DNA from: Chondrosia reniformis
Taxonomy: Eukaryota; Porifera; Demospongiae; Chondrillida; Chondrillidae
Direction: 5' to 3'
Length of the DNA stretch: 64,000 nt
Assembly (NCBI GenBank): GCA_947172415.1
Contig: OX359190.1
Coordinates: 7,688,001 to 7,752,000, forward strand
Shown: piece by piece, positions 31,922 to 63,897 of the stretch
How the letters are laid out: each line of letters opens with the position of its first letter
Numbering within the stretch: the stretch's first letter is position 1
The notes under the pieces: model-generated
Database searches by the model: none
Seen by the model: the letters and a program-made list of their open reading frames with translations, nothing else
What the model was told of the DNA's origin: nothing
Position numbers and translations under genes: made by a program

Positions 31922-32462
31922 TCACATTTCTATCTGCTTCTCAGGATCCGTACTAGATGGCTGAGGATCACCTATACCAAAGGTAGTCACTGATGGGATG
32001 GATGGAGGATCTTTGGTGGAACCATATTTTCCCTTATTATCTGTTTTATCACTATCTTTGGACTCCTCTTTCCCCAGACTTTTCTTCTCCATTTCCGATT
32101 CTCCATTAGTGATACCAAATGATGTTGAGGTCACATTATCTGGCTCTCCATTCTTAGCTTCCGGACCACCAGATATAGGGTTCATCTGAACATCTTCGTC
32201 CTTGATGCTCTCAGCATCATCATCCTGCTTTACAACAAGTCCCATTCCTTCAGTGCCACCAAGAGAGGATTTGACTGAGGTAGTAGCATACAAGTTTGAT
32301 TTAGCAGTTGAACGGGAACCAAATGAAGCTAAACGGGAACCAAATGAAGCTAAACGGAATCGTAAAGATTAGTAATGATAAAAAGACTAAATAGATATAC
32401 GTAAACACTATACTATTAAAATAAAGAATACCTTTTCCTGTTGAACTTGGAGAGAGGATACC
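31922..32462 (-). CDS. Gene B cytoplasmic tail exons with tandem splice acceptors
   Basis: A 31-base exon (32432-32462) is followed by the last exon ending at the 31922 stop. Its acceptor is duplicated: ccgtttag followed by cttcatttgg occurs twice, 21 bases apart, giving starts at 32349 or 32328 with the same frame. The choice adds or removes the seven residues ASFGSRL. The tail is hydrophilic, rich in Ser, Lys, Asp and Glu, with no recognised domain. Confidence 0.75.
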
Positions 32463-35400
32463 CTTAAAGGAAGGAGGGATGTTAAAATAATATACACACA
32501 TTTACACTATATATATGTTACATATGTTTTCAACTATATACATAGCACAAATATCCAGTTGTTATATATAGGATTAGTTTACCTTGTCACATTTACACCA
32601 AGCCTTTATCTTTCCCCAAACCTTTTCATGTCTCAATACGTGAAGCACAAAGATAAGGAAACCCTTTGATGCATAAAAATAGTAACTGTATAAGATAACT
32701 ATCATGCAAGCTGACAGAAATGAAATGCACTGAAATGACAGCTGCATGGAGTGAAACTGATTATATACGTATATACCTGTAGTGAGTTGGCAACTATAAA
32801 GAGTATAGCAAATACTTGTCCTGCTTGACCTGGAGCTATAGCAAACAATCCAATGACCCAAGTGAAACAGAACAACGGCAGCAAAATGATGATAGTCTTC
32901 AGTAGTTGTCTAATGAACATAGTAAAGGTTATCAAAGATTATTATTTACTTAATTGTATGAACCACAGTGCTTTATGGGCAGGAAAGTGTGTTTGGTAAT
33001 GAGGTGATCTTCTAATTCACAGACAAATGTTTTAATATGTAGATGTAGTATACATTATCTCATTATGAAATGTATGTACTTACTTTCCAATAGCCTTCAT
33101 GTTCGAACTATCTCCTTTTTTGAAATTTGCTTTATTTCTACATTGATTCTTAGCTAATGAAGCCATACTTAGAAACAGCAGTACTGCATTCACCTACAAA
33201 GTGATACAATTTCATATGGGTGTACCATTTATGGACTGTAGACGTCTCACTTTAGCCTTACCACTACAATCAGTATCATAGGTCCAATGAAGGCCCAAAT
33301 CACTCCAAGATGAGGAGGAAGCCAACAACTGTGTATATATAAGACATCCAGTTAAGGGAGGAATACCTTTATATAAATTAAGTATTGCATAGCTCACGTA
33401 TGAATGTGTTCATAAAATGGATCACTTGTGTCAAAGGATGCTCTCCTGAAATAGACCTCGTGTCTAATGGCAACTGACACAATTACAGCTGGAATAGGTA
33501 GACCTTTACAATAATGAGTCGGAATAGAAAAGATTGTTATACATATACGTACATTCAAACATTTTTATAAATGTTACCCCATCCAAGTGCAGTGTAAATG
33601 TAAATCCACTTCTTTTCATTAACTCCAAACACTTTAACAAGAAGGTTGTAGATGAGAACTCCTTCACAGAGTGACCAAGTGAACACTGATAGGAAGAAGT
33701 AGTGCATCAGAGTGGTCACTACTTTACAGGCAGTCTAAACAGGCAGAAAAAGAATAGTTAATTAATCACCGCATCATTGAGATCATTTGTGTTCTTACTG
33801 GAACAGATGTAGCAGTGTCTACACCAGCCAGAAACACAATGAGACCCAGTGTCAATGCAATACACAAGTTCAAGTGTACATAATTGTGAACCTTTGTGAT
33901 TAGTTCTTTCCTGAAAATGCAATAAAGTATATGGATAACTTGGACGCCTGTTGAACATATAATATATTAAACAGATAATAGGCAGTGTGTATAGTGCAAT
34001 TTGTATAATATGTATATATACACGAAATCTCACTTTAAACACAAGAAGAATATGATTGAGATTATCAAGAACAAAATAGATATTCCACATCCGATGTACG
34101 TCAGAACATCAAATGCTAATGGTTCACCTAAAGTCTACATGAACATAATATGGAAAACATTTAAAATTGTCATTAGTGATTGAAAATTAATTATCATACC
34201 AATTATATAATATATGTATACGTATGTAGTATACGTATACTTACTGTATCCACCAGAGAAACTAGTACTACAAAACTGGTCAAATGAACAGTTTCACATG
34301 TAACTTGTGTTCCATTCTCAGTTTCAGTGAAGTTTAGTCTTGCTACTCCACTTCTAGACCATCCTCCAGTTCCCTTGTTAGCATCGGGATTCCAAAACAC
34401 ACAAGTATACTCTCTCCTTTTACCAGAAGGCACTGGACCATTCAGTACCTCATCCTATACGGGTAAATATACACCATATGTACGTAATTATTAAATGTAA
34501 TTATGGTATATATACCTTAACATTAAATTCAATGATAACTTTATCCGTAAAGTTTTCAGTTACACTTGGGACTTCTATGTCACCAATCTGACTGGAGACT
34601 ACAGGAGTACCTGGTACTATATTATCACCTTCTATCTCTACTTCACCATCTCTATAGTAAATAACAATTTGATACATATAAATGTTGTGCTGTTTTAAGG
34701 AACATTTTTCATTTCAACAACAAGTACTTACTGAAATTTTATTGGTAAATAATCCTCCATATTGTTCATTACAAAGTTGACTACAGTAGTAGTGTCTTCA
34801 TCTTCTGAGGAAACAGACGGTGTTTCAGTTGTGGGTGCCACTGTAGAGCCATCAGTTGGGGATGTAGTTGTGGGTTGATCCATTGGAAGGGACACTTCAG
34901 AGAGTTACGTAACATAAAGAGATATAGTATGTATGTAATACTAAAGTTTAAACTGGAGCAGACAAATTACTACATAAATGACTAATGATAATCAAATACA
35001 GACCTTGTTTTACTGCCATTTTGATGAAACTTGAGGGAATATTCAACTTTGGTATGAATTTTTGGTTATTAAAGTTAGATCTAAGAAGACTACCTGGAAA
35101 TAATATACCACCTGGACGTCTCAAATTAACTCTACTACCTTGAAAACCTGAAATAGTATATAACAGAAGTGGTAGCTTTAAATGCAAAGGACATGAGAGA
35201 ATGTCATATCAAACATTCATATCATACCAAAATTAGGTCTAGTGAGTGTAATGGTTGGCTTTGAAGGTGTAAGAGCTCTACCAACACCATTAGCTATCCC
35301 CTCAGTTGTCCTCAGTATGGCTGCTGATTCAGTTGTCTGGTTAGCAACTGGTACTTCATTGGTAGCTGTAAAGGCTGCCTTATTATTTTCATCCAGTATA

Positions 35401-38400
35401 TTGCTCACAATATCAGCAATATTCTGTAGAAAATGTATAGTACATTTTACTGTTTAATTAAATGTAAGTACATATGTTCATGAAATAAAGATATAATTAA
35501 GGCATGCAATAGCCACAATTACCTCAATAGTTGCATTAGTTGCATTGCTGTCCGGATCAAAAAGGTTGTTGCTTTCACCCAATCTATTCAGAATAATATA
35601 CAGAACATCCATATGTACATACGTAATACTTATCAATTGAAAAAGTCAAGCGAATGTATTTTTAATACAAATACAAGTATTATCAATATACATACGTATA
35701 CTTGAGCATTCAAGCATAAATGTATCTACACAGTGATATTGTTTTGTAATGTACTTGAAGCTAACTTCTCTATTTGTTGTAGTACAAAAGTAGTAGTTTT
35801 CAATTCTCTTGGTAGGATAGTCTCATTTTCAACTGGTTCAGTAACAGTACTGAGTTGTGCTGTAATATCATCAACAACCTCCTTAGCTGTTTCAGTCAAA
35901 GGCTCATTGGTAGCATTAGATACATTCAGTGTGTTTACCAGAGATTCGGCCTATTTCATATGGAGAGATAAAGGTACAGTACGTATATGTATATGCATTT
36001 ATTGAGAATATACATATACACAACTAATTGATTCTGCTTGCTAAATTGGTACAGTTGTACATGTACCTCTAATATTATATTGTTGAATTCTTGAGAAGTA
36101 CATGCAGTAACATCTACTTCACCCCAAGTCCTATCAGAATTGCACCTCCTTTCAGCAAGACCTATGTAATAAAAGCAAAATAAAAACATTTAAAAAAATG
36201 AAATTAGAAGTAGGGATGGCCCATGCAACAAATGACAAACACATCTGGAAAAAGTAGCGAAACAAGACAGTCACCATGTGATAAGGCATACTGAAATTTA
36301 AGTGACTTAACCATACACATCACTTCAATGTTTGGGCGCACCAGTATCATGATAGCTGAAGTAGGGATGATGTGCCCAAACATAGAAGTGATGTGTATGG
36401 TTAAGTCACTTAAATTTCAGTATGCCTTATCACATGGTGACTGTCTTGTACTTTTTCCAGATGTGTTTGTCATTTGTTGCATGGGCCATCCCTACTTCTA
36501 ATTTCATTTTTTTTAAATGTTTTTATAATTGGCTACATTTATATTTATACATACTATATATATATTACGTACTTAAATTGCTGAAGCACTGTATATGTAC
36601 AGTACAATAGTATGTTATTGCATACCAGTAACAGTTCTGCCTTCCCTTTGTGGACAACGCAGATGAGCTACTTCACCAGCAAACACTTCTGGCCACTCTA
36701 ACTGCCATTCTTGATCAGTATTTGGTGGACATGTAATTTGACCTTCTTCAGCTATAGTTATCAAGAGTGCTTAATTGTCAAAGCTGTATTTTGTAATATG
36801 TACATAAAAGTAAATGTTCTTCAGACCAGAGTATATGGATATAAACTTACGTTTATCACAGATTCCTGGCTTATTTTTACATTCATCCTACATTAAACGA
36901 ACAAATACGGAATGATCATTTTAAAGAAACTGCATTCAGCAGATTAGACACACAGACTACACAGGTGCACGTGCATATATATATATATTTAGGTCAGCCA
37001 TAAAGCGTACATATTCATCCAACAGTAAATAACGCAGATGTAAATATATGTACATACGTACGTACATACATTGCTATGTATAATAGGAGACTATGTACTA
37101 ACGTCAGAGTCTGGTATGCCATCTCCATCACTGTCAATTTCACAATTACCATGGCGGTTCCTCACAAATGGTGTTACACACTGTACATATGTTATATTCA
37201 ATGTGTAAGTTATTAAGTCTTACTTGAACTCCTGTTATATACAACTCACCATACATCCTCGTTGCCCTGAACAGGTACATGATATACCAGTACCAATACA
37301 TAAGCTCTGTCTACCTCCTAACGTCACTGGTGTACTTTCATTACATGAGCAATCATCTATAAATAGTGTATCAATAATTCAAAATCCTAGGATCTCTAAG
37401 CTAAAGTAGATTATGTACGCATACTCCACTGATTTTTCAAAGTTAGAATTATTGGTATTAGTCAATACTTCATACACATACACATATATATAGTGATGCA
37501 AGCTAACAGATATACTGCTATGTATGCAGCTGAGTCCATATACGTATATACATACACCTTAGATCAGAATATGGAGTATTGCTTACTTGATGATGTGTAT
37601 ACAGTGGTGTCCTCGACTGGTTGAAATACTGCTGCTGTCGCATCTTTAGTAAGAAATGTGACAATTGCAACAAAACTTGTGTTGTCTGGTGTTACAATTT
37701 TAATTGTATAATTCTGCTTTGTTACATTCTGGATCTGAAATAAAGGTAGGTCACATTGCGGGCTGATATTACATTTTTGTCATTGAGACCTATTTGTGAC
37801 TATTAATAGTATATTGCATGCATTCCAACTATATAACATGCATCTACTTGTATAAGTATAATATAACTAGTGCATGTATTAGGTACTTTTAGAGATGTTT
37901 CAACTTTAACTTCAAAACTCTCTACATCACTTCTACCACTCTCTGACACAATTACTACAATTTCATTCTCCTCTGTTCCATTCTTAAATGTACATCTGCT
38001 TATATCCACTGACTCCCACAGTCCTGGGACATTACATCTTCTAGTTGCTAGGGAACTTGAGAAAGAACTGTGGATCTCAGAACACTGTAAAGAGGCACTT
38101 TGACCAATAGCTGTTACAGGCCATGTAATGTTTCGAATAGTCTCCTTCCGGCAGCATCCAATACAAGGATCCTATACGTATATACATTTTATAAGTATAT
38201 ATATACAGTACAAGTTACAATATACTAAGGTAATCTAATATAATATAATATAAATAATATAATTAATTAATTCATATGGCTCCAAGAAAGGACTTAGAAA
38301 CAAAATGGGCATATCATCATAAAGATTAGGGTATAAAACTCATTTTAAATTAAGGGATTTTTAATTTAGGCCTCAGTTTATTAGAAAACAGAGGACAAAG

Positions 38401-41400
38401 TCTGCATATAAAAGGCCATAGGACTATAGAAAACCTATGGGAAATTTATATGCAAACAATGTGTTATATTGATAAAAAATTTCAATTTGTCAGATAACTG
38501 TGAAATCAACATATATCATGGTACATGTGTATAAGAAACGTCTGACGAAGTTTTGCTTAATTAAATGAGCAAAATAAGCAAGATATAATGAAGAATTCAA
38601 AGTTACGATTGCGCAAGCTGGTGATGTATTGTGATGTTCTTCTAATGCGTCACCGTATGTCGCTCCGTACACACATTTTGTGAATCATGTGACGTTGCGT
38701 AAACGTCACCGACTCGTTGCTAAAGAAGATCATCCTTCGAGAACGGCTATGACAAGTCGACGCTCTCCTACGAGAAGGAGCTACCGAACAGGCGAGTTGT
38801 AGCGAAGGTTAGATAAAGCGTTTTTGTATACGTTCCCGTCAAGTTTGAGGCAGAGTTGTTCCTATATTGATGCGAAAGACGATTCGTTTGGTCGACCGTA
38901 TTACTTTGGTAATTTAAGCTCTGTCTTCTCTTCTTACGTTATCTGTTAATATTTTTACTTGTCCATGTGTAGGAATTAGGAGTGTTTGTTGCGATCATTA
39001 CGAGAATAAAGCTTTGTTGAGTGTCAGCAACATGAATTTACTAATTTCCTATTTATACTGAATTGTATTCCCACTCCTCATATATTGCTGATGCATGAAG
39101 ACCTCTGGGTCGAAACGTCCAGAATTAGTAAATTCATATTGCTGACTTTCAACTAGGCTTTATTCTTATCCATGTTAGTACGTTTTCCATGTGTACTACA
39201 TACAGTAACGAAATTGCTTATAGCGAATGTCTATAAGTATAGTGAAATACTTTGTTAGCTAATTACACTCAAGTACACTACACAGTGCAAGTTACTAGCA
39301 AATATATAAAATATTAAATTACAATCAAGTACTACACAGTACAAGTTACAAATTTAAGAGATCCAAGTGACTATGTAATATTAAAATTACAATCAAGTAC
39401 TAGCTACACAGTGCAAGTTACAAATTTAAAGAGATCCAAGTGACCCCTAGGATAATCAGTATTTTAAACAGTACAAGACTTTAGTCACACTAGTACTGTT
39501 GCAGGCTTTGAAATCCTCAACTACTGCATAGAGAGTAGTAGTTGATACAGATCATCCAATTGCAAGGTAGAACACATGGCCTACCAATTACCTTTTCACA
39601 CCTTAGTATAGACTGAAGATGATGCATCTGCATGCCATATATCAACAAAGGCTCCAGTATTAAAGGGGTCTCAGCTAATAACCACAGCAGATTTGATTTG
39701 CCTTGTGAGGGAGCTAAGAACACCGACGGTTGGTTGCATGCATTGGCATAATCAACAGGGTTAGAGACCATTTTGTAACTTGTACACAAGGGACATCATA
39801 TATACGTATATAAAGGCCTTGGCCTTTTATGTCCCTTGTGTACAAGTTACAAAATGGTCTCTAACCCTGTTGATTATGCCAATGCATGCAACCAACCGTT
39901 GGTGTTCTTAGCTCCCTCACAAGGCAAATCAAATCTGCTGTGGTTATTAGCTGAGACCCCTTTAATACTGGGGCCTTTGTTGATATATGGCATGCAGATG
40001 CATCATCTTCAGTCTATACTAAGGTGTGAAAAGGTAATTGGTAGGCCATGTGTTCTACCTTGCAATTGGATGATCTGTATCAACTACTACTCTCTATGCA
40101 GTAGTTGAGGATTTCAAAGCCTGCAACAGTACTAGTGTGACTAAAGTCTTGTACTGTTTAAAATACTGATTATCCTAGGGGTCACTTGGATCTCTTTAAA
40201 TTTGTAACTTGCACTGTGTAGCTAGTACTTGATTGTAATTTTAATATTACATAGTCACTTGGATCTCTTAAATTTATATATATATATATACAGTGCAAGT
40301 ATATATATAGCAGTAAAATACAGAAATATACATAAATAGAAAATATAATTATACCCCAATGATAATATATGATGAATGATTTGCTAACTTTATAGTCTGC
40401 AATCTTATCATCATCGGTGTCCAAAGTGCATTCATAATCTTCCATTAAATATCTCTCATTACACTAAAATCATATTGTATACACATATATTATATCAAAG
40501 AAAACTTCTATGGTATTATAGAGAGCAACTATATAGCATTCCAATATGGAGAATAGCCTAGCTATGCGTAGTAGATAAATATGATCATAAACACAGTACT
40601 AACTACATTTGTTTTTTCATCTGAGCATTTGCAGGCTGATGTTGCTCCAGGTGATCCGACACAAAATGTTAAGGGACTAACTGATGACGTCACATTTATA
40701 ATATTTTCACAACAACCACATGAATCTAAGTAGTAGAGCAAGAGCAATGAAAACTGATAATGCATTGCATCCAGACAAAAATGAATATTAACACTAATTG
40801 TGTGATATATATATATATATATATAAACCAACCATTTGCTGACATAGCGACTACAATTCCAACTTCAACTACTGGGGACATTGTATCTTCAATTACAATT
40901 ACAGAATACACTGTTCCATGTCTGAGCTGTGAGGTCTACAGAGAGTGTAAAGCATATATAGATATACAGCATAAGGATGATAACTGTATATATATACTTC
41001 ATCTTCACTAGGCACTAGGTTTTATACTATAAAGCATCAGCTACCCTTGCTAATTATATATAAATCAAGGGATGTGATGGTTAAGCTAGTTTTAAACATC
41101 TTGCTATTTCACAGATGAAGACCTTTATGTTTGAAATAAGTAAATTATTGACTCAGCTAAGTATAGCTATTAAATAAATTGACCAATAAATTCATATCAC
41201 AATGAATACAACAAGTACACAACACTCCCTATACGTTTAGATACAATTTCATTGGGTTGGATTAAGTATTGACTCAGTCAAACTTACATATTTCCTAATG
41301 TTAGTATCTGTTGCTTCCAATAAGTGAATCTTGTTTGGAAACTCTCTGAATGTACATTGTGACAGGTCCAGTGACCCCCACTCTCCATCACTTCCACACC

Positions 41401-44400
41401 TTGCTGATATGATACCACTGTAGAGAAGATCACTGAGTGTGGAGCACCTCACAGTGCGAGTCTCACCAACCGGGGTGGAAGTGAAGATGAGAGTATTGGG
41501 ACAAGCTGCAATGTAAATGAAACATATATGATTAGAATTTAATTGATACATTACCATACCCCACATTTAAAATGTATTATCTGAGGAAATTTTCATCAGT
41601 TACATGACAATATAGTTCAAACGTTAACATTATACTGTATATATACACCAATGTGTTGCCTAGTGACCATATCATGTCCTTCTGCAAACCACCAAATTAT
41701 AGAAATACAAATAATTGATATAGTTACATTCTAACAATTCACAAAAGAGTTTACTAACAAAACATATTTCTAAGCATTGTTAATAATATTACATATCATA
41801 CTGGTCAGGTAGTTTTAGATTATTCTTACTTCTAGGAAGAGGACTAGGAGTGAGTACTGCACTGCTTGATGGAATAGAACTGCTTTCTGAGCTTGGAACT
41901 TCACTAGTTGTTACAACACTACTTCCATAACTCTCACTGCTTGTTGTATCTTGTGATATCTCAGAGGACGTGGGTTGCACAAAAGATGATGAAGGAGTTT
42001 CAGTAGTCCCCAAGTTATCACTGGTTGTAGTTCCAATTACTACATGCGAAAATACAGTTTCAAAATATTATGTACACGTACATGTGATTAATATTTGACT
42101 GATTTATATAGTATTCTGAATAGAAGCATATATATACTATTGTGTTTAAAGAGAGTGAGTACTACTTGACATATGACCTATTGTATAAAGTACTAAAATA
42201 AAGTAGGTACGTACGTATATAAAACAGTATATACTTAAACACAATATATAGCATATATACATACATGCTTAGATACAGTGCAAATTACAATATACTAGGG
42301 TAATATAAAATCAAGTATTACACAGTACAAGTTACTAAACAAGTGACCCCTATAAACAGTACAAGACTTTAGTCACACTGTTGCAGGCTTTGAAATCCTC
42401 AACTACTGCATAGAGAGTAGTAGTTGATACAGATCATCCAAGGTAGAACACATGGCCTACCAATTACCTTTTCACATCTTAGCATAGAATGAAGATGATG
42501 CATCTGCATGTCATATATCAACAAAGGTATATAATATATATATAATTGTATAGAGGCATAGACTATACATATATATAACAAAATCAAGCTAACAAGTTAC
42601 TAAATAAAATGTGTGATAGTATACATTCACACACAATTACAATGATGGAGGAATTGTTAATTAGATATCTTACTGTCAGGAATTGTTGTAAACATCACCA
42701 TGACAGCATCAGGTCCAGTTCCATTACTATTGATAGCAGCTACAGTAAAACTGTATGTCACTCCAGTCATCAGATTATCCAATGATATTTGAATTACTGC
42801 TCCAACTGTTCTTGTCATCTGACTTGATGGATCACTACTTAACTGGTACTTTATCAAATATCCAGTAATTACTCCATTTTGGTCCTTCTCAGCTGGTGGG
42901 TCCCATGTTAAAATGACTGAGTCTCGGGCTGGAACTGCTCTTAGATCAAGTGGAGGACCACTGGGAACTTGAAAATGTATTGGAAACTTAAATATTAAAC
43001 AAGATTTTAGTGAAATACCATATGCATTATAATTATGGTTTATCTTTACTGGCATTCTAATTTTAAACATATACATTGTCACTTGAGAGAAGGTAGTACA
43101 ATATATATATAAGCATTTAAAATACTCACCTGCTGAAGGCAGTATGGTGTCCATGTTAGAATTACAGGAATTTTCTCCATTTGAAGATGTACATTCAACA
43201 GTGTAAGTAACATAAGGACTTAAACCATCCACTGTATACTGTAACACTGTACCAGTTACAGTCTTTGGAGACAGACCACTCACAGCTGTAGATATAGTAC
43301 ACTTGTAAGTAAGAAAAGATGATCTAGCTGGTGCAGTGAGTGTGATGATGAGTTGTGTTGAGGAACTGGCTGACAGTGAAGATATTGAAGGAGCTATACG
43401 TATATATTAGAAGATAGAAACAGTAGATATTCAGAATTCATAACACCTGTTCTGACTATATTCAGGTGATGATTTTATACATTGAGCCTAGACCTAGTAC
43501 AGGTCTATATATAGATAGATAAATAGCAGCTAATTCATCTATATAGGCTTGTACTATAGGTACGTATATATGCTATAAGTATATTTTTAAATCTCTTAGG
43601 CATTATATATATTTTTTATAAACACCTACGTACGTACGTATGTATATATTTTATGACATTATGCAGTGAAAATATTGTAGTAGTACCCATTTCATCACAT
43701 CTTCACTATGCATATATCCAAAGATGAAATTTTTTGTGCAGTCTATAAAGTCAGACATTTTACTGAAGAAAATCCCTATATATATAGGTAAAGACTGATC
43801 CACAACACTCCATCAAAGAGGCTAAAAGGTCTATTATATTAAAATCATAATCTAATTAAATCTTATTTTCATTAATAAAATTATCTACGTACTACGTAAT
43901 TTTCATAAACACTCATCCTATAACAACCTTGTGGTCTAGTTCTTCCTGTTCCTGTCACTTCTCCTCCATCTCCCAAGTCATTGAAAGCTAATACTCTTAC
44001 TACGTACAGTGTGTTAGCTGTTAGACCACTCCATGTAGTAGTCTTAGTAGTTCTCATTGAATGTATTAATGTATCATTTCTATACACTTCATACTTGACT
44101 GGTAGTCCTCCAATGTTAGATGGTGCTGTCCAAGTAACCATCAGTTGGTCACATGATCCAGATGGAGGAGATATCATGAGGTTAGTGGGAGCACCTGGAA
44201 CTTGATATAAAATATCATGAAAAGAGAATGTCAGCCATTTAATAAACATTAAATTTTAATAGTTTAGATTTCTACATGCAATTAGGCATATACAGGTATA
44301 CGGTACGTCTAGAAAATATCTTTACATAAAAACTTCCTCTTTGAGGTAGTTTCTCAAAAATGCCTAGGAAGTTTTTTTAAAAGTTCCTGAAGTTGTATAG

Positions 44401-51660: not shown

Positions 51661-51789
51661 GTGATACTCCTAACATTTCATGAGGGCAGGATCCATGGCA
51701 AATAGGTTGCTGCTATATGTTAAATATAGCTTGATATACAGTCTACTAATGACATCCATATTAGTTCATTGTTCATGAAATAAATTAAA

Positions 51790-52010: not shown

Positions 52011-52505
52011 ATGATTTACTAAATGTGTACGGAGCGACATACGAGAGGTGTTGGTGACGCACCAGAGAAACATCACCATACATCACCATCATAACCTTGA
52101 ATTCTTCATTATATCTTGATTATTTTGCTCATTTAATTAAGCAAAACTTCGCCAGACGTTTGTCATATACATGTACCATGATATATGTCGGTTTCACAGT
52201 TATCTGACAAATTGAAAAATTTTACTATATAATATAACACTTGGTTTCAATATAAATTTCCTATAGCTTTTCTATAGTCCTATGGCATTTTATATGCAGA
52301 TTTTGTCCTCCGTTTTCTACCAAACAGAGACCTAAATAAAAATCCTTTAATTAAAAATGAGTTTTATACCCTAATCTTTATGATACTATATATGCCCATT
52401 CTGTTGCTAGGTCCTTTCCTGGAGCCATATGAATTATATATATTATATATTTTATATTATATTAGATTAGATTAGATTACCTTAGTATATTGTAACTTGT
52501 ACTGT
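52000..52505 (+). repeat. Dispersed repeat, inverted copy of 38204-38720
   Basis: Shared words in complement include the gtacggagcgacat, tttaattaagcaaaacttcg, catatgaatt and tatattgtaacttgtactgt regions. After it, 52506-53048 holds an (AAT)n at 52639-52664 and no gene that I recognise. Confidence 0.85.
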
Positions 52506-53048
52506 ATATAGTTGTACAGTTGCTGATTAATGATATACATATACATATATAAATACGTATAGTATAAACATACAGTAATTTATGGGCCCAACTTGGCCTT
52601 GTGTTTCCTTTCTTAAAGGTACATACACGTGTCACTTTAATAATAATAATAATAATAATAATAAAAATATATGTTCTTAATCTTAACGCTTAAGTGTCCT
52701 GAACATTATAAATAATGATATCAATAGAAAAACTTCGTTAACTAAAGCTTCCTGAATGCCGCCATTTGCAAAAATGATGTATTGACGTATAAATCAAGTG
52801 TTAAGTGTTATAATAGTTGCGTATGAACTCGTATTTACTATAGATATCATGATAATACATATACATATTGTACAGTACAGTATATATACCAGTATAGATA
52901 TTGCAGTTAATTAAGTACATGGTATTCCTGTTCTATATGCATACACCATACAGGAAGAGATCCTTTGAACATGTAGCCATTAAACAATTATAGAAAACTA
53001 AAACATGCTTTTTAGGGAAAAACACCGGCCAGTACTTTTCTCACTAAC

Positions 53049-54105
53049 CTATACAGGTGTTATTGGAAACTCTAAACCCTTGATCACATGAGGAACAGGA
53101 GTAACTACCATTAGAGCTATGGCACAACTGATCTGCAGCACAACTGTGGTTTCCATTGGTACAGGGGTCAATAACTATAAAAAATGAAATATGACTACAA
53201 TAAATGTATACACATTATGTACATACATACAGTAGTGATATATATAGTCATGTATATTATCCGCATGTTGTACTATATAGAATATATAATGTACTGGTGA
53301 TATTATCCAAAATAATTCCAAAGCTTGACTATACGTACGTAGCTAATATATGCATTTACAGTACTTAATATCAATATGAAAATGGAATGAAAGGGCTATA
53401 TACTATATATATGTAGACATTAAGTAAATGATTATATATATACAAAATAACAGAAAAATTGTGCGCTTCTATATTAATAAATCCTTCTTCTAAAATGTAG
53501 ATCAAAATATGGATACACATGGTCATACCCTCATAGGAAACTAATGTGGTATATACTCCAAAAGGAGAGAATTCAGGATAATATATATAAATGCAAATGT
53601 GTTTGCATATACCTACCAATGCAATGATACTGATCTCTTAGAGTGTACCCACTTCTGCAGGAACATAAATATGATGTGGGTGTATCAATACAGATGTGAT
53701 CACAATTATGTGTTCCTCTTTCACATTCATCTAAACCAATCAAGGCATAATTAACTCATAGCAGTTCTTATTTGGTAAAAAATTACACATCAAATAACTT
53801 ACCATGATCTAATCGAACTGTTATTCTTATCGCATTACTGTCTCCACCCTCATAAGAAACAATAACATCAATTGTATAAGTAATGTCTGGTTTTAATCTT
53901 CTAAAGGTGTGCATCAAATTGCTACCAACTGCATATGTCGACTGTTGGAATATGGAAGGATCATGGGAACTCTGTATCTGAACAGTGTACAACTGATATA
54001 TAGTGGTTACATTTGTTGGTGGATCCCAAGCTATTGTAACAGTACGGGTCTGACCGGCGTGAGTTACCTTAACAATTGTTAGGTTTACAGCACTTGGATA
54101 AGTAA
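53049..54105 (-). CDS. FN3 exon and two EGF-like exons (possible 5' part of gene B)
   Basis: 53803-54105 is FN3 (TVTIAWDPPTNVTTIYQLYT, LKPDITYTIDVIVSYEGGD). 53617-53730 is a calcium-binding type EGF (DECERGTHNCDHICIDTP, CSCRSGYTL). 53049-53174 is an EGF-like module (DPCTNGNHSCAADQLC, SYSCSSCDQGF) with an extra Cys. All are phase 1-1 with good gt/ag sites. The next exon leftward on this strand is the cassette exon 47286, which also starts in phase 1, so one transcript is possible. Confidence 0.8.
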
Positions 54106-54409
54106 CTATATACATAGAGAATATATTGCTCTAGATCTATAAATGACAATATTTGCGGCATGATAATCATAACAACATACATACATATATATACATGAAT
54201 AGCTCTCATGCATCACCTCATTTGCATATACGTCATCATCATTTCATACGTATGTATATAAATTTCAATCAAGCCAGCTCACTTGCAATTGGATGAATTA
54301 TAGATATATGACACCTCTTATGGTATATGGGTAAACTATATACCTGGTTGATTAATTATGTACATTCTATTCCTTCTGCACTTTTAAAATGTATGCATAT
54401 ACGTATATG

Positions 54410-54785
54410 CCAAGGATTCACAAAAGATCAAGATCGCGAAAAAGACCAAGATTCCCAGGGTTACTGATGAAGGGTGGAATACCCAGGAGGAGAAGAAGAA
54501 AAGAAAAGAAAGACTCCTGTATCTTGCAGAGTAAGAATAGCATGTCAGAAAATGGCAGGGTGTATTGTGTTTTTCATATAGTATTTTCAGGATTTCTGTG
54601 CTTGTAATGATCCCATTGCAATACAATTAATTCAGGCATATCCTATATTTGTCTATTCTCAAATGTACATATGTATATATATATACTCCTGTATCTTCAT
54701 CCAAAGCTCTCTCCTGCAGGTTTAGTTCCCCTATAGGCTTTTTTACAGAGGCACAGCATGTAGGAAAATAGTGTATTAGATTTTT
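54410..54785 (+). repeat. SINE-like element, interrupted
   Basis: Two parts (54410-54530 and 54685-54785) match the family at 61350-61580 (ccaaggattcacaaaaga, cctgtatcttcatccaaagc, cctataggcttttttac), with about 150 unrelated bases between them. 54786-55215 shows nothing recognisable. Confidence 0.75.
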
Positions 54786-55215
54786 CATACAGTAATAGCA
54801 TAAGCCATTTAGGCAAAATATTCTCATTAAGTACATATTATTTCCTATATACTCAATTGCCAGCTTGTTTACACTATATATATATTAGTTAAACTTGTAA
54901 ACATGATGACACAGGCCATATAAGTAGTGTGTAAACGCTTCACATATATGTACCCATTTCTGCAAATGCACATGTTGTTTAGTTAATGTATATAGCTCGC
55001 CTTACACATATACACATTCCATATACATTTGCACCACACATACATACAGTTAGGTAAAGGAATTCCTACAAAGTTTTCCCAATGACCCAATATACCCCAG
55101 TCAGTCGGGCAATCAGTCAGCCTGAATTGATTATATTTTGGGCATCACATGCAATATTGATTATAAATATATATAAATAAAGTTTATATAAAACATATTA
55201 ATATATATAAATAAA

Positions 55216-55278
55216 GCATTATTTATGCATGAATCCTACAAGCAAGGGTGTTGTATGATTCATGCATAAATAATGCTT
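55216..55278. repeat. Perfect 22-base-arm hairpin
   Basis: aagcattatttatgcatgaa and tc are followed, after 20 bases, by the exact complement ending gcataaataatgctt. The loop can pair further (tacaa/ttgta). The right side continues into a MITE-like segment related to 16810-16876. 55280-56117 otherwise holds only a weak tRNA-like A-box near 55545. Confidence 0.9.
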
Positions 55279-56117
55279 CACTGTGTAACATCCCTTTCTT
55301 GTTTCTGAACTTTTTTCGAACCATCCCTACATCTTCTATATTTTTGTAGAAAATTTTATCGTTCGAATTCTCTAGTTTATATAAATCTAAAAACGTCCGA
55401 TAAACAATTATAATTAATTACAATTATTGGACGCCGTATTTTACTCATAATAGCGAAGTTATTCGCGCTTGGATGTGTCTCGAACTTGCGAGTCGAGCTT
55501 ACACTCTAATAATTGAGAGAAAGCATTCCCTCTGGCGCTTATGTAGTTCAATGGCAGAGAGCTGGTGCTTAATAACTGTTTCCATTTTGCATCGTTGCAT
55601 ATAGGAGCGTGTATTTAAAATGAAATACAAGATATAGCTATCTTTATTAAGCGCTTTGGTAACACGATAAATAATAATATTTATCACACTTGTCCATTTA
55701 CCTTGTGTGTTTACAAACTTCAAGAAATGTACCAAACTGAGAATAGTGATCAATCTTCCAACCATCTTGACCGATAAAATTTAGACCATACTACCTGCCC
55801 ATGCATAACACAAGTGACGTATTATATAATAATTAAGCCGGCGACCAGACGGGCCAAATTGTAATTATAGTCTTGTAGTCACCTTATATATTGAAAATAG
55901 TTAGATATTGGATTTCAAACCGAAACCTTTTTTATACTATACAGCTAGGGAAATACAAATCAATTAAGACACTTTTTCGTATTCTGTGTGGTATATTGTA
56001 TATCCAGATTGTATGTATATAGGGATTCCACTATTATATTACGGAAATTGGTAATACCTTGAGATTGAGCTATGTAAGACCTTGAAGCCTGATTGCTTTC
56101 ACACACATCTATATGGC

Positions 56118-56193
56118 TAGTCTCGGTCGCAGACCCAGCCGCCATTTTTATTCGTTCGGATAAAAATGGCGGATGGGTCTGGGACCGAGACTA
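56118..56193. repeat. GC-rich 33-base-arm hairpin
   Basis: The arms tagtctcggtcgcagaccca...gccatttttat and their complement are separated by tcgttcgg. The sequence stands out as GC-rich. atatggcta occurs on both sides, possibly a target duplication. A ccgccattttt word lies in each arm. 56365-56450 nearby has short ttcaa and gatact runs. Confidence 0.9.
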
Positions 56194-56624
56194 CTATATG
56201 GCTACTGGCCATTGTTTATAGACCATTTAGTAACTGAATTATAAATGTACAGACATGAAAGGTTGAAACCTTTATAACCTTGATCCATGCAAATGGGTTG
56301 TCAGTGATAATCATCTCCTGGGTGGTGTTCTTACCTACAGTCGTCACTCTGACTGGGGCAGTATAGTATATTCAATTCAATTCAATGATTAAGGTGCACC
56401 ATGCCCAAGGGCATTAAGACTGATACTGATACTGATACTGATACTGGTCCAATGTAGCACTAACACATGTGATTGTACATAATTATAAGCAAAAAGATAT
56501 ATAACAACACGTACATAAATAGTTCAAGTCAAACATACATAGTATACATAGACAAAACGTATATAGCTCTTAGTAGTTCTTTGGAATACTAATAATTGTT
56601 ATTTAAAATGAAATATGATTAAGT

Positions 56625-56925
56625 TACATCTTGTCCACCAGAAAAACAGCTGGGGAACTCTCCACTTGTCCAGTTTTAGCAGTCACTTCAATCTTGTACC
56701 TTTTCCCTCTCTCCAGTATAGTAACATAAAATGCTCTCACAACACCTCTCACTCTGATCATCCTCAGTTTGGTCACATGATCATGATCATCTTCTATTGA
56801 TAGGCTGGATACTGTAATGATAAACCAGTCTACTGGAGAGGATGGGAATTTCCATAACAAGACAACTCCTTACACTGTTCGAAAACTTCTTGTTATAACA
56901 GGAGGAACTGGAATGACTATATATT
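56625..56925 (-). pseudogene. FN3 exon relic with in-frame stop
   Basis: The frame reads VLLWKFPSSPVDWFIITVSS, RAFYVTILERGKRYKIEVTA and KTGQVESSPAVFLVDKM, an FN3 pattern. A TAA (56870-56872, minus strand) lies in frame ahead of VVLLW, and no good donor follows. It is probably a dead exon in the line of FN3 exons. Confidence 0.6.
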
Positions 56926-57070
56926 GACAAGGAAGGAAGTGTAGTTACCATGAATACATTATATACAGTACAAGTTACAATATATACTAAGGTAATCTAA
57001 TATAATATAATATAATATATACAGTACAAGTTACAATATACTAAGGTAATCCAATATAATAAAGTTAAAT

Positions 57071-58170: not shown

Positions 58171-58334
58171 CTATACAGTACAAGTTACAATATACTAAGG
58201 TAATCTAATATAAATAAATAATATAATATAATTAATTAATTAAATAATTCATATGGCTCCAAGAAAGGACCTAGAAACAAAATGGGCATATCATCATAAA
58301 GTTTAGGGTATAAAACTCATTTTAAAGTGTACCT

Positions 58335-58757
58335 CTAAAAGTTGTCCTGCTAACAGTATCACTCCATGCTCCGCTTCCCAAATCAGACACAGCTCTCACT
58401 CTCACTTGATACAATGTCCCAAGTTGGAGATTCTCTATAGTAACCATTCTTGTGTTACCAGTTGAGGTCCTACTCAAGTTGTCCTGCTAACAGTATCACT
58501 CCATGCTCCGCTTCCCAAATCAGACACAGCTCTCACTCTCACTTGATACAATGTCCCAAGTTGGAGATTCTCTATAGTAACCATTCTTGTGTTACCAGTT
58601 GAGGTCCTCTCCATCCAACTACCACTAGTTCCACTCCTGTACTGTATCTTATAACTAGTGATGGGACGATCACTTGATGGAGCACTCCAAGTGACTCTCA
58701 GTGATGGTCTGTTTGAAGTGACGGTCCTAGTTACTTGATTGGTAGTCAATGATACAT
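58335..58757 (-). pseudogene. FN3 exon broken by internal duplication
   Basis: Paralogous to gene A FN3 exons (SLRVTWSAPSSDRPITSYKI, LGTLYQVRVRAVSDLGSGAW). About 137 bases of its 3' part are tandemly repeated (58338-58469 and 58475-58606), which puts a TGA in frame at the junction. One base is also missing near the start relative to the paralogues. A repeat fragment abuts its 3' end at 58330. Confidence 0.75.
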
Positions 58758-58988
58758 ATTTGGAACTACAGACAGAATAGTATAGATTATACCAATATCT
58801 AATACCTAAAAATGTTGTTTTCAAGAAGCAATGACTGATATATACACTCAAACATAAATGTAGAAGAATGTCTGTATACTTTGCTGTAGATATATACAGT
58901 ATATCTACACACTTTACATGCAAATCAATTTCTGAAATGCAACACTTATCAATAAATAATTTTACCTATAAACTTATTACATATTTAC

Positions 58989-61900
58989 CTGTAAATGTAG
59001 TCTCTGACACTCTTGTACTGTAAGGTCCTTGTCCATTGGATGAAACAGCTGCTAAACAAATGTAGTACATTGCACCTTGTGTAAGTCCACTCAGTGTAGT
59101 TGATGTACCAGTGATTCTTGACATTGTTGATGCTCCAGATGGTGGTTCTGTTGTAGTACCACTACTAGTTGAACACCTCACAGTGTAGGTTATTCCAGAT
59201 CCAGACACTGCAGTCCATGAAACTGTCAAAGATGGAGATCCACCTGATACACCTCTTGTAACAGTGACACCTTGGACTTGAGGTGGAGGTGGTGTTGGAG
59301 ATGGCATTGCTGATATTGCTACAATGTATAGAGGAAGAATGCAAAAAGCTTGTAACATCAATTATAAATTTAAAAAATTGAGCAGAATGTATAAATCTTT
59401 GGTATCAAGCTAATTAATACTCTTTTTATTTTATAGAAGTTACGTATATACGTAGGTAGGTATATAAGTGCCTAAACCAGCTGCATACATCATGCATACG
59501 TATTTCAAACTTAATTTTATAAACAAATTGGAGATATAAAAATGCTAGTATACAAAATGAATACAGTCATATATATATATATATAATACAAGAGTGTAAA
59601 CTAAGCCAGTTGTGTTTTCCTCCAGAGTTGTTCCATTAGAAGATGAATAATATATAGTATAGTACTTTGGAGCATCATTTTCTGAAGTTGCAGGTTCACT
59701 CCAATAAAGTGTTTGATTGATACTCTTTTCTGTTGTTTCTGTAGTTCCTTTTGTAATGTTGTTTACTCTTTCTGGTACTGTGAGAGAATAATCAATGCAT
59801 ATCAGACATATTTTATGATATATAATTTGCTAAACTTACCTTCAAACTTAGTTGTCACACTAGAGTTGAACTCCAAACATACTTCTCTACTTCCATTGTA
59901 TCCAATACAGTGAATGCTGTAAGTTGTATTTGAACTTAGTCCTGACACTTCATCTTCAGTGGCTGAAATATTCACTGTTATATTGTTGTTCAAATGACAT
60001 TTAAAGTATTGTGAGTTAAGTAACATTGTGTGGTTCTTTGAAATTACTATGTTGATGGATGATGAGTTTAATCGTTTTACATTGCCTTTAGCCTTATCTA
60101 CAGTATATAAAATAATAACAGCTTATACACCAATCTTCAGAAACCAGCAACCGTGCATGGCATAGATTTTCCATTACAGCATTAGCATAAAAGAGAGTAT
60201 TTTATTCTCTCAAATAAAGGTAGTCAATGAATAATAAATGCATTAATGTTATTCCTGGATTCTACCAAAGGTCATAAAACATTTGCGTACCTCTTTCTGT
60301 AGTTGTTATGTTAATTTCTGTGGCTTCACTGCTTGTGGCAGCATTGATGCTTCTCACTTGTATTGTATAGGAAGTTAAGGGAAGTAAATTGCCTATAACT
60401 GTTGATGTTGTATTCTCTTCAGTGACAAAGGTAGATTGATTACGAACAGCTATGTCATACATTAAAATTGGTAGATCTCCACTACTTTTACTTTGATTCC
60501 ACTGAACTTCAATTGACTGACATGTTATCATAGCATTAGCATCAGAAATTTCCACAGGGGCTGCAGGTTCTACAAGCACATTTATTGCACATTTATAGTC
60601 TTATCATATTAGGAGTATATAACATGTTATTACATACGTATATACATATATTGCTGATGAAGGTAATTAGTAAAGCTGCTAATGCTCAATAAGGCTTTAT
60701 TCTCTTCTTACATACAGTATATATGTACATATGTATGTAAATACTATATATACTATTATAATTATAATTGCACAACCAAAACATACTGCTTACTGTAGTC
60801 TAAGGTTATACTGTCACTAAATGGTCCTGTGTTGTTTCTTGATTTTCCAGCTACTGACACACTGTACTTCATAAGAGGACTTAATGGTAAAGTTAAGTTG
60901 TATTCTGTATGGTTTCCTTTAGTTTCTAATATTGTACAGTTAGTTGTGATCTCTTTACATGTCCGCACAACATATACCTCTGGTTGGTCATGTTTCTCGT
61001 TATTAGGTGTATCCCAAAGTAAGCCTTGAACTATGTTTGAGCTATTTTCAGGTACACTGGTTTTTGCAGTTTGCAGATTCTGTATCACATTAGGAACTGA
61101 TGGATTGAAACAATTAATTATACATATGTACATGATATTGTAGTGGCTTATATTGTTGCATTTGATAATGGTACTAAATGGTCGCAATTGAGCAAATTAT
61201 AAATAGAATGAATCAATAATAATTACAGGACATTTCAACCATGAACGTCTTTTCAACTGTAAAAGCATACATACATACGTTCATACGTATATTCTACTTT
61301 ATGAATATATACATATGCAAGCATGAATTCAAATTCTTAATGACATTTTAAAGTACATGCCAAGGATTCACAAAAGACAAAGATTCCCAGGGTCCCTGAT
61401 GAAGGTTGGAATTCCTAGAAACAGCGTCTGGCCCAGTGGAGCAAAATAGGAAATATATAGGAAAAAGCTCTATATCTTCATCCAAAGTTCCCTCCAGGTT
61501 TAGTTCCCTATATATAGGCTTTTTTTTATTTTTACAAATTAGGCATAGCATGTAGGAAAATGGTGTATTAGATTATTCATGTGTATAGATACTTCATACT
61601 TTAGTTTCCTTTTCTACATTTTATCAAACAACCCACAACTTAGTACATACGTACATATACATATCTCGTTTTGTGTGCATTAGGTTCATCATTTAAACAT
61701 ATATACGTACCTTGTGACTTAGTTGTTATGTCTAAGCATCCTTCAGTACTTCCATTGTATCCAGTGCACCGAATAAGGTAAGATGTGTTTGGTTGTAGAC
61801 TGCCTACGATCACCTCTTTGTCAGCAGTGATATTAAAGGTAGTTGTCAAATTACCATCATATACGTACTTCACATTCATATCTTTCAAGGGGTATTGTGT

Positions 61901-63897
61901 TTACATCATGATAGCTTATCTTCAGTGTTGTAGAGTTAGTACTCACTACCTTTAGCTCACTTTCTGTGTACAGTATGTGACCACAGATAATTATATATAT
62001 TTTCATATGCATTTCATATTAACGAACATCATCTGTATTATATACGTATACGTATAATACACAATATACGTAATGTATACCTATAAGTTAATAATAATAG
62101 TAATAATAGTAATAATTAGTAATACCTTTCAATTTAACAGTTTCACTTTCATTCTCATTTGTGTATCCGATTGCATTCATAGTGACAAATTTAAAGGTAG
62201 TTTGAAGAGACTTTAATTCAGTTATTATCACAAATGACATGTTTGTTGTAATATTCACTTGTCTGCCATCCTCCTCGTAGAAAACAATATATCCCTCTAT
62301 TGGTAGACCTCCAGAATTGGCTGGTGGGTACCAGGTAATGTTAACACTAGAGCATGTCATTTGTGTCACAGTTACATTGACTGGAGCTGATGGTTCTAAA
62401 CAAATGTACAGACATCTATAGTTAAAGCACAGTTCGTAATGGAATAAGATTTTAAAGGACAAAGAGGTTAGGAGAGCACTATTTTGATAGAATGTAAACT
62501 GAAACAAGAGGTTAGCCATAAATATAGTAATCCCTATCCTATATAGTTGTTTGCCAATATCAGTCAAAATAACTTACTGTATTACATGGCTGTACATGTT
62601 CCTAGCAATAAGAATAGCATGCAAAATATACATATAACTACTGTAGCCATCACTACTCTGGAAGCAATTTAGCACAACAAAGCAACTACATACATATGTA
62701 TATACATACGTACATATTGCACCACAGATTTTAGTTTGTATTTTATATAATAAAGGTTTAGAACCTGTAAGTCACTAAATGCCAAAGATTATTAAATACA
62801 CACAAAGACTATTTACAAAATATGAATTAGAAAATGAAAAGCTAAGATCTACAAATTGTTGATGTACTATGTACTGGTAAAAATTAAAAAATCTTTATAA
62901 TGTGTTTATAGTGAACTTAAGTACACATATAGAACTAAAGGTATTTTTGTGTTAGAAGGTATATTGTGTTAGTTGCACACCTACGTGACCTATTATAGTG
63001 ACATTACCTGAATATGTAGTCTCTGACATTCTCATGCTGTAAGTTCCTGGTACACCTGATGAAACAGCTGATACCCAAATATAGTAGGTTGTACCTTCAG
63101 CAAGTCCACTCAGTGTAGCTGATGTACCAGTGATACCTGACACATTTAATGCTCCAGATGGTGGTTCTGCAGTAGTACCACTATTTGTAGAATACCACAC
63201 AGTGTAGGTTATTCCAGATCCAATTACTGCAGTCCATGAAACTATCAATGAAGCAGATCCATTAGATGTACTTCTTGAAATGTTAACACCTTGGACTTCT
63301 GGTGGTACTGGGGTAGCTACATAAGATGCGGAGGGTAGGACTAGGATTAATGCATATATATACACTTCAACCAAACTATGGTGTAACTTTATATGTATAT
63401 ACTCAAAGGATTTTAGCTCTTCAATTGTAAGAAACTGACTTATTGTCTACTAAAGGTGCTACATCAAACATATACATCAAGTTCCTACTTTATGGTTTTA
63501 AACACATAATTAGTGGTAACTATGACTGTGAGTTGAATCATAACTCTGCACATATACACAATAGGACAGCTATGTTTTGCATTTAGTTTTACAAACTTAC
63601 CAAGCACTACTGTGTAAGTTGTTATGATCGTTTCATCCTTATTTCTTACACGACAAGAGTATGTTCCAGCATGACTTGTAGCAAATGTAGAAAAACCTAA
63701 TCTACGTCCAGTAGGTCCACCAGCTGTCCACACTTCACCTGTGGCTTTTACTATATTTCCTGTAGTATACCACTGCTTGGAAGCTGGTGTCCTGCTACAC
63801 CATAACTCTACTGATTGATTAATGGTGGGTGTTGCAGTTATGTCGACTGGAGGAGAACCTGATCCAACTATAATAGTTGTAGCTGGTTGTGAAGCAA
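58989..63897 (-). CDS. Ig and FN3 exon series (possible 5' part of gene B)
   Basis: Phase 1-1 exons: 63601-63897, an Ig domain (VELWCSR, KQWYTTGN, HAGTYSCRVRN); FN3 or FN3-like at 63008-63316, 62126-62395, 60794-61096, 60291-60569, 59840-60097 and 58989-59318. Typical cores are VNITWYPPANSGGLPIEGYI, LPILMYDIAVRN and LIVSWTAVIGSGITYTVWY. 61711-61963 is an FN3-like exon of 253 bases, one base out of frame. About 59600-59781 is a half FN3 whose second half is missing. Ig and FN3 arrays act in cell-surface recognition. The first exon lies beyond the window, since 63897 starts in phase 1. Confidence 0.8.
61350..61580 (+). repeat. SINE-like dispersed element, fullest copy
   Basis: Contains ccaaggattcacaaaagac, ccctgatgaaggttggaatt, tggcccagtggagcaaaat, cttcatccaaagttccctcc, ataggctttttt and gcatgtaggaaaatggtgta in that order. 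The other copies hold subsets. It lies in the intron between 61711 and 61096. Confidence 0.78.

What the first reader, a model, noticed from the sequence alone, without database searches (positions are those of the whole stretch)
31922..63897. One giant adhesion GPCR gene, or two abutting mosaic genes
The 35-exon gene B begins in phase 1 at 47286. All intact upstream modules on the same strand (EGF, FN3, Ig; 53049-63897) are phase 1-1, so they could be its 5' end, giving an Ig-FN3n-EGF2-mucin-FN3-HRM-TSP3-HRM-GAIN-GPS-7TM receptor of well over 3,000 residues. I know of no described adhesion GPCR with this order. A LINE and several broken FN3 exons lie between, so the alternative is a separate decaying gene.
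Basis: partly seen in the sequence, partly recalled or inferred. Interest (0 to 1): 0.8.

Follow-up and report, generated by a model that had tools for sequence, protein, structure and literature searches.

The report
Sponge receptor with a borrowed front
In a sponge, an adhesion receptor gene that lost its own front end appears to have gained the upstream region, secretion signal and first binding modules of a different receptor from another chromosome, while the long immunoglobulin and fibronectin stretch beside it is a fragment of a third, unrelated gene.

Summary
Gene B (minus strand, 31,972-47,226) is a real adhesion GPCR, one of six near-identical tandem copies. The other five have a conserved signal-peptide exon 5' of their mucin-type modules; gene B has none. 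Its homology stops at 51,768, at repeats.

Beyond them, 52,510-56,965 matches, in collinear pieces with introns, the 5' end of chromosome-1 adhesion GPCRs: presumed promoter, signal peptide (55,765-55,702), FN3, EGF, EGF. It breaks off in a phase-1 intron, and its last donor joins gene B in frame.

The Ig-FN3 array (59,585 to beyond the window) is a fragment of a chromosome-6 receptor-like gene, cut inside an exon; the chromosome-1 segment lies between it and gene B.

Best reading: a young chimeric receptor of about 2,000 residues, SP-FN3-EGF-EGF-mucin modules-FN3x3-HRM-(TSP3)-HRM-GAIN-GPS-7TM, made by exon shuffling between two adhesion-GPCR families. No RNA was available, so the splice is inferred.

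The parts
55702..55765 (-). Signal-peptide exon, chromosome-1 type: MVGRLITILSLVHFLKFVNTQ, phase-1 donor; proposed start of gene B
   Evidence: 21 of 21 residues identical to two of the three chromosome-1 relatives (the third gave no match); splice site and ATG conserved
53803..54105 (-). FN3 exon (chromosome-1 type), phase 1-1
   Evidence: length changes against three relatives only in multiples of 3
53617..53730 (-). EGF_CA exon 1 (chromosome-1 type), phase 1-1
53049..53174 (-). EGF exon 2 (chromosome-1 type), phase 1-1; its donor joins 47226 in frame
52510..56965 (-). Segment collinear in pieces with the 5' end of chromosome-1 adhesion GPCR genes (upstream region, four exons, introns); ends in the intron before their third EGF exon
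   Evidence: blastn pieces against C1:6122525-6127681 (83-94%) and C1:6115972-6121157 (75-94%, and one 26-base piece at 100%)
51767..52510 (.). Repeats at the breakpoint; a related 159-base piece lies inverted at 58168-58326
   Evidence: (51996-52510 found on 13 of 14 chromosomes; 40 scored of 1461 candidates)
50764..51768 (-). Block P: stretch largely specific to the C2 cluster, 5' of the mucin-type modules; gene B's C2 homology ends at its 5' edge
48822..49897 (-). LINE reverse-transcriptase remnant inside the proposed first long intron
46703..47226 (-). First body exon of gene B: Ser/Thr/Pro-rich mucin-type stretch plus a Cys-rich module of unknown family (M)
   Evidence: (0 Pfam families)
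44915..46320 (-). Second M module and linker exons (46320-45490, 45104-44987, 44944-44915)
42674..44200 (-). Three FN3 exons (44200-43893, 43365-43130, 42967-42674; ends approximate)
41288..42039 (-). Mucin-type exon (42039-41830) and first HRM exon (41505-41288)
36067..37180 (-). Weak TSP3-like exons (37180-37103, 36887-36851) and second HRM (36769-36626, 36161-36067)
34245..35950 (-). GAIN domain exons and GPS exon (34454-34245, HLT cleavage motif)
   Evidence: GAIN PF16489 E=1e-8, GPS E=1.9e-10
31972..34134 (-). Seven-transmembrane exons and cytoplasmic tail
   Evidence: 7tm_2 E=4e-42
59585..64000 (-). Part of a chromosome-6-type segment (Ig, FN3 array), continuing to about 68450 outside the window; cut inside an FN3 exon at 59585; not part of gene B
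58319..59573 (-). C2-type FN3 block; the piece that gene B lacks between 44288 and 44262
56627..56869 (-). Broken FN3-like exon (TAA where chromosome 1 has TCA): an orphan exon carried in with the chromosome-1 segment

Best explanation
Gene B is a chimeric adhesion GPCR. Its body (M modules to 7TM) is one of six tandem chromosome-2 copies. Its ancestral 5' end, with the C2-type signal peptide, was lost at 51,768 and replaced by a 4.5-kb segment copied from a chromosome-1 adhesion GPCR: presumed promoter, signal peptide, FN3, EGF, EGF. Transcription would start near 55.8 kb. The donor after the second EGF (53,049) would be spliced over 5.8 kb of repeats, LINE and block P to 47,226, both in phase 1. 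Inferred product, about 2,000 residues: FN3 and EGF modules and mucin-type stretches at the tip, then FN3 repeats, HRM, GAIN and GPS, with cleavage at HL/T and a tethered agonist (TSFVVLV) that signals when the tip is pulled or removed, as in other adhesion GPCRs (recalled). The Ig-FN3 array upstream belongs to another transcription unit. Shown: sequence homologies, breakpoints, phases and open frames. Inferred: the splice, promoter use, direction of copying and signalling.
For: 1. The C2 signal-peptide exon M(S/P)C(A/T)TLVLLFLAAFNLLHVT with a GTAAGT donor occurs at 8 places in the 264 kb and at a ninth in L034; it lies 5' of the five other 7TM copies and no match lies in gene B's region. 2. 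Window 52510-56965 matches chromosome 1 in collinear pieces, introns and upstream region included. 3. ATG, frames and splice sites of the four exons are conserved with two chromosome-1 genes. 4. Frameshifting indels against C1b: 0 in 607 exon bases versus 33 in 3,046 non-exon bases; about 3.3 would be expected on the window branch alone (P 0.037). Against C1a: 0 in 610 versus 24 in 1,315 (P 0.004, not independent). 5. An orphan FN3-like exon in the same segment has gained a stop. 6. The donor at 53,049 and acceptor at 47,226 join in frame. 7. Gene B's 26 consensus exons show 0 stops and 0 frameshifts in 1,153 codons; omega in its five pairs is 0.13-0.40 over GAIN/GPS, 0.41-0.60 over 7TM and tail, 0.48-0.80 over the ectodomain. 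8. First introns of the five other copies run 2.6-13.3 kb from signal peptide to first M core (positions; differences), so 5.8 kb is not unusual.
Against: No transcript was seen. The chromosome-1-type segment differs from its relatives by 5.6-12.1% in non-exon parts, so it could be intact by youth alone. Its exons are not slower than its introns against C1b (6.4% against 5.6% substitutions), though they are against C1a (7.1% against 12.1%). Its FN3 has dN above dS in the window's pairs, which fits relaxed constraint as well as diversification. The 26 consensus exons were chosen because at least 4 of 6 copies leave them open, which favours a count of 0 stops. If the intron after the second EGF is retained, translation stops at once (CIG*), so a secreted protein of about 200 residues is possible.
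Confidence: 0.65

Rival explanations
1. Beheaded gene: gene B lost its signal peptide and is not expressed or not secreted; the chromosome-1 piece is a passive or separate fragment, at most a small secreted FN3-EGF-EGF protein.
For: Own signal-peptide exon missing; intron retention after the second EGF gives a stop (sequence); the chromosome-1 piece is young and its exons are not slower than its introns against C1b.
Against: 0 stops and 0 frameshifts in 1,153 codons, constrained GAIN/GPS, no frameshifting indel in the four exons while a neighbouring orphan exon has a stop, in-frame phase-1 junction.
Confidence: 0.21
2. Giant read-through receptor: exons from 64 kb (or from the C2 signal peptide at 79.3 kb outside the window) are spliced through to gene B, giving Ig-FN3n-EGF2-mucin-...-7TM.
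For: Exons are phase 1-1, so skipping broken ones keeps frame; a C2-type signal peptide lies at 79,334 upstream.
Against: The array is a chromosome-6 fragment cut inside an exon at 59,585 with a 4-bp insertion in another exon. The chromosome-6 cluster has none of the 95 7tm_2 matches. A chromosome-1-type upstream region with signal peptide lies between. The Ig search found no match in the C2 receptor cluster besides the window's own (150 of 279 candidates scored), so the sister receptors seem to lack it.
Confidence: 0.09
3. Assembly artefact: unrelated haplotypes or repeats were joined wrongly at 51.8, 58.3 or 59.6 kb.
For: Breakpoints fall at repeats and in a highly similar tandem array.
Against: No N in the 264 kb; the published assembly reports contig N50 4.71 Mb and QV 69.8 (PMC12181767, passages).
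Confidence: 0.05

Closest known systems
Sponge adhesion GPCRs (Amphimedon queenslandica; Krishnan et al. 2014, PMC4302439, passages seen)
   Same: 7tm_2 with GPS in 28 of 40; HRM in at least 8 of 40; fn3, EGF and Ig domains listed in the Figure 4 legend
   Different: The passages seen give no order FN3-EGF-EGF-mucin-FN3x3-HRM-TSP3-HRM-GAIN-GPS-7TM and no chimera with named donors; the figure itself is not held
Chromosome-1 EGF-type adhesion GPCR of the same genome (C1:6119.1-6110 kb); recalled parallel: vertebrate EGF-type ADGRE
   Same: Signal peptide, FN3, EGF and EGF at the N-terminus, same splice phases
   Different: The donor goes on with further EGF domains, GPS and 7TM; gene B switches to C2-type mucin, HRM and 7TM parts
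Class 1-1 exon shuffling (Patthy 2021, PMC8001218, passages seen)
   Same: Phase-1 flanked extracellular modules joined through introns; intron in phase 1 behind the signal peptide
   Different: Here the event is recent enough for donor introns and upstream region to be recognised, and the signal peptide and upstream region moved with the modules
Large Ig/FN3 gene cluster of chromosome 6 (C6:5.38-5.60 Mb), probably single-pass receptors
   Same: Source of the Ig-FN3 array at 59.6-68.4 kb
   Different: No 7tm_2 match there; the window holds only an internal fragment

Membership tests
Adhesion GPCR | 7tm_2 seven-transmembrane domain | tested here: met
   PF00002 E=4e-42, positions 4-246 of 250, on a protein joined from predicted exons
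Adhesion GPCR | GPS motif next to the first helix | tested here: met
   PF01825 E=2.9e-10 and 1.9e-10; HLT at the expected place (motif recalled)
Adhesion GPCR | GAIN domain | tested here: met
   PF16489 E=1e-8, 35.3 bits against cut-off 26.5, with exon pieces added that the model had shortened or missed, without them, gave no match
Adhesion GPCR | Signal peptide and long adhesive N-terminus | tested here: inconclusive
   Own-family signal peptide absent; chromosome-1 type present 8.5 kb upstream of the body; the splice needs RNA
Adhesion GPCR | Autoproteolysis and tethered agonism | not testable with these tools
   Needs expression
Chimeric gene by exon shuffling | Parts derive from distinct source loci | tested here: met
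   chromosome 1; chromosome 2 tandem copies
Chimeric gene by exon shuffling | Junction in introns of matching phase | tested here: met
   phase 1 on both sides, in-frame join
Chimeric gene by exon shuffling | Chimeric transcript | not testable with these tools
   No RNA data held
One giant Ig-FN3n-...-7TM gene | Ig-FN3 exons belong to the receptor family's 5' end | tested here: not met
   Array is chromosome-6 type; no other Ig match in the C2 receptor cluster (150 of 279 candidates scored)

The most novel reading that the evidence does not exclude
This stretch of sponge chromosome 2 is an active exchange site for receptor front ends. Phase-1 segments from chromosomes 1 and 6, moved with their introns and in one case with a promoter and signal peptide, are spliced onto a tandem adhesion-GPCR array. 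One product, gene B, has gained a new ligand-binding tip and a new expression programme, and its FN3 is under diversifying selection, as expected of a recognition receptor.
Probability: 0.25. Interest if true: 0.78.

Novelty: new variant of a known kind. Interest (0 to 1): 0.58.

Why it matters
Class 1-1 exon shuffling is credited with building the animal adhesion and receptor toolkit, mostly from ancient examples. Here donor relatives, recipient, breakpoints and five sister copies that kept the original front end are all in one assembled sponge genome at mostly 75-98% DNA identity, so steps such as promoter capture, signal-peptide swap, phase matching and decay of orphan exons can be tested directly. 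It also warns that automated gene models across this locus may fuse or split unrelated genes.

Tried and rejected
Gene B starting at 47.3 kb without a signal peptide: a strict scan of 44.3-82 kb found only 79,322 (20 shuffles, mean 0.05); a relaxed scan gave 7 rows on the minus strand, 0 on the plus strand, shuffles mean 0.73 (30 shuffles). No row lies between 44.3 and 55.7 kb; the strict scan misses the chromosome-1-type exon, whose support is homology.

Block P (50,764-51,768) as the 5' end: rejected, because sister copies stay homologous for 2-4 kb further upstream and their signal peptide lies there.

A signal peptide at 64,472 (outside the window, before the Ig exon): a candidate of the relaxed scan. 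The genome search with it returned Ig relatives but no separate signal-peptide match (150 of 279 candidates scored), and an EGF exon precedes Ig on chromosome 6, so I treat it as chance.

A target-site duplication explaining the FN3 block at 58.3 kb: rejected on reading the junctions; gene B lacks the block between two introns.

Transposon carriage of the chromosome-1 segment: inverted repeat ends flank it, but the repeat is widespread, so the mode of transfer is unresolved.

Substitution tests on the chromosome-1-type exons: few changes (window-specific 5 synonymous, 13 non-synonymous). The EGF1 rows for two chromosome-1 genes used only 45 bases through an anchor error; they also enter its concatenated rows, and neither is used. 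In one search my frame for one FN3 exon (FN3h) was wrong, so its stops are not counted; 20-base flanks were included, and two further frameshifting indels (FN3c 1 base, FN3i 5 bases) probably lie in flanks, since the predicted exon lengths differ from C6 by multiples of three.

In one search I joined the two TSP3-like exons in the wrong order, one of them from a sister copy, and the GAIN region lacked some exon pieces; one search repeated both with gene B's own exons in order and is the one used.

The gene finder was home-made, trained on eight loci and iterated on its own predictions. Several short or low-support exons are not in the part list.

M module: 0 Pfam families, best PDB match E=0.85, structure prediction not available.
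Full report
Where it is. The held genome has 117,379,552 bases in 15 contigs, and the window is C2:7,688,001-7,752,000. C1, C2 and C6 are 10,409,357, 10,288,994 and 8,731,016 bases. Table 3 of PMC12181767 gives 10.41, 10.29 and 8.73 Mb for chromosomes 1, 2 and 6 of Chondrosia reniformis (passages). The species is an inference from these lengths.

Gene B is real and one of six. A 7tm_2 search of the genome gave 95 matches (150 of 153 candidates scored), which show six loci on the C2 minus strand from 7.72 to 7.92 Mb. The 190 kb upstream of the window and 10 kb on the other side were fetched. The part of gene B from 31.85 to 44.26 kb is 95.4-97.5% identical at DNA level among the six copies. A home-made exon model run on all six gave common exons: three FN3, a mucin-type exon, HRM, weak TSP3, HRM, GAIN, GPS, seven helices and a tail. 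Pfam confirms fn3, HRM twice and 7tm_2 (4e-42), GAIN (1e-8) and GPS (1.9e-10); TSP3 is below its cut-off (0.0015). Across 26 consensus exons and 1,153 codons gene B has 0 stops and 0 frameshifts, while copy u3 has three frameshifting deletions. Exons were selected for being open in at least 4 of 6 copies, which favours that result. dN/dS in the five pairs that include gene B is 0.13-0.40 over GAIN/GPS, 0.41-0.60 over 7TM and tail and 0.48-0.80 over the ectodomain. Two apparent splice defects were resolved by reading the alignment.

What lies in front of the body in the sister copies. In C2 copies the body is preceded by modules of mucin-type sequence plus a Cys-rich domain unknown to Pfam (M), then by block P. 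Grouping the hits by eye, P material lies 5' of 12 of 13 close M arrays; the exception is a stop-containing fragment at window 3.6 kb, and one array has only 40 bases of P. More distant M relatives (53% identity or less, outside these arrays) were left out. P bases 487-721 also occur, at lower identity, on other chromosomes. Homology among sister copies continues 2-4 kb beyond P. There, a conserved exon encodes MSCATLVLLFLAAFNLLHVT or a close variant, with a GTAAGT phase-1 donor, at 8 places in the 264 kb, and a ninth stands 5' of the sixth copy. So the five other 7TM copies have this signal peptide; four of the nine belong to 5' units without 7TM. Gene B has none: its homology stops at 51,768, at repeats, of which 51,996-52,510 was found on 13 of 14 chromosomes among 40 scored of 1,461 candidates.

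What took its place. A scan for signal-peptide exons showed a candidate at 55,765-55,702. A genome search with the joined SP-FN3-EGF-EGF protein (150 of 476 candidates scored) found three relatives on C1, two of them with signal peptide, FN3, EGF and EGF in the same order. DNA of C1:6,110,001-6,128,000 and 6,165,001-6,175,000 was fetched. The window from 52,510 to 56,965 matches it in collinear pieces of 75-94% identity (one 26-base piece 100%), introns and upstream region included; up to 56,544 the match runs along one C1 gene (C1b), the last 400 bases match upstream of the other (C1a). C1a runs SP-FN3-EGF-EGF, further EGF exons, GPS and helices (7tm_2 at 6,111,392). The copy in the window breaks off in the intron before the third EGF. 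All four exons keep frame and splice sites, and the first its ATG. Frameshifting indels are 0 in 607 exon bases against 33 in 3,046 non-exon bases versus C1b, and 0 in 610 against 24 in 1,315 versus C1a; substitutions, however, are 6.4% in exons and 5.6% outside versus C1b, 7.1% and 12.1% versus C1a. An FN3-like exon carried in the same segment but 5' of the signal peptide has TAA where C1 has TCA. The FN3 of the segment shows dN above dS in its pairs with C1a and C1b, mostly in its first half, while C1a against C1b does not; numbers are small.

The join. EGF2 ends in phase 1 at 53,049. The two exons join in frame. Repeats and a LINE lie in the 5.8-kb gap. The five sister copies have 2.6 to 13.3 kb between signal peptide and first M core (positions; differences).

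The Ig-FN3 array is something else. After the window's own match, the best 19 Ig matches all lie in a chromosome-6 cluster at 5.38-5.60 Mb, and FN3 exons of 60.3-62.4 kb match there at 76-96%; the 7tm_2 search had no match in that cluster. Window-scale coordinates 59,585-68,450 match C6:5,525,933-5,517,351: three long collinear pieces at 84-92%, shorter ones at 77-98%, one of them inverted. The fetched C6 gene (5,517-5,533 kb, both ends open) reads FN3s, EGF, Ig, many FN3s and one weakly predicted hydrophobic exon, so a single-pass receptor is likely but not shown. The copy stops inside an FN3 exon at 59,585 and has a 4-bp insertion in another; of 14 exons compared, one (FN3h) could not be judged for stops, and the other 13 show no stop when read in the C6 frame. 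The C2 block at 58.3-59.57 kb is the piece that gene B lacks at 44.26-44.29 kb.

Conclusion. The locus holds at least two transcription units. Gene B most likely starts at the chromosome-1-type signal peptide and is a chimera of two adhesion-GPCR families. The Ig-FN3 array is a chromosome-6 fragment that lies in another C2-type 5' unit (signal peptide at 79,334, outside the window). The giant gene remains possible only through splicing over a presumed promoter and broken exons.

Known and new. Sponge adhesion GPCRs with HRM, fn3, EGF and Ig are known (PMC4302439, passages), domain shuffling in adhesion GPCRs has been proposed (PMC12716839, passages), and class 1-1 shuffling is classic (PMC8001218, passages). 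Searches for adhesion GPCR with sponge and domain terms (1 paper, 10 papers), for exon shuffling with sponge terms (8 papers), for this species with GPCR (4 papers; the species name occurs once in each), for adhesion GPCR with exon shuffling and segmental duplication (53 papers with at least three of four terms, 10 listed, none of these 10 containing 'adhesion GPCR') and for sponge adhesion GPCR with domain shuffling (1 paper) showed no report of such a recent chimera. Apart from passages of the papers named above I saw listings only.

Noticed in passing
window 24657-26375, + strand: A 572-residue open frame with a NACHT domain (Pfam E=3.7e-18), so an NLR-like immune-type gene may lie inside the receptor array.
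   Followed up: no
window 7.6-18.0 kb, - strand: Another C2-type 5' unit (signal peptide at 17,992, block P, four M modules, FN3 block) without a 7TM part; one M exon has an in-frame stop near 12.86 kb.
   Followed up: partly
window 44.9-47.3 kb and copies in L012, L014, L020, L023, L024: Cys-rich M module with no Pfam match and no PDB match below E=0.85; relatives on chromosome 3 (2.15-2.19 Mb) and C2 8.74-8.76 Mb. A possible unnamed extracellular domain.
   Followed up: partly
window 46009-46231; window-scale 211.5-212.1 kb (L023): 21-bp Ser/Thr/Pro-coding minisatellite whose copy number differs between tandem receptor copies.
   Followed up: no
window 53803-54105 against C1 FN3 exons near 6117.1, 6124.4 and 6173.3 kb: FN3 module of the chromosome-1-type receptor changes mainly at non-synonymous sites in its first half: possible diversifying selection, small numbers.
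   Followed up: partly
L029-L030, C1:6126.9-6120.8 kb: A chromosome-1 relative may be SP-FN3-EGFx3-FN3 and then a stop, that is a receptor 5' end without 7TM (open frames only).
   Followed up: no
window 1578-2618, - strand: A second reverse-transcriptase open frame (RVT_1 E=4.6e-9).
   Followed up: no
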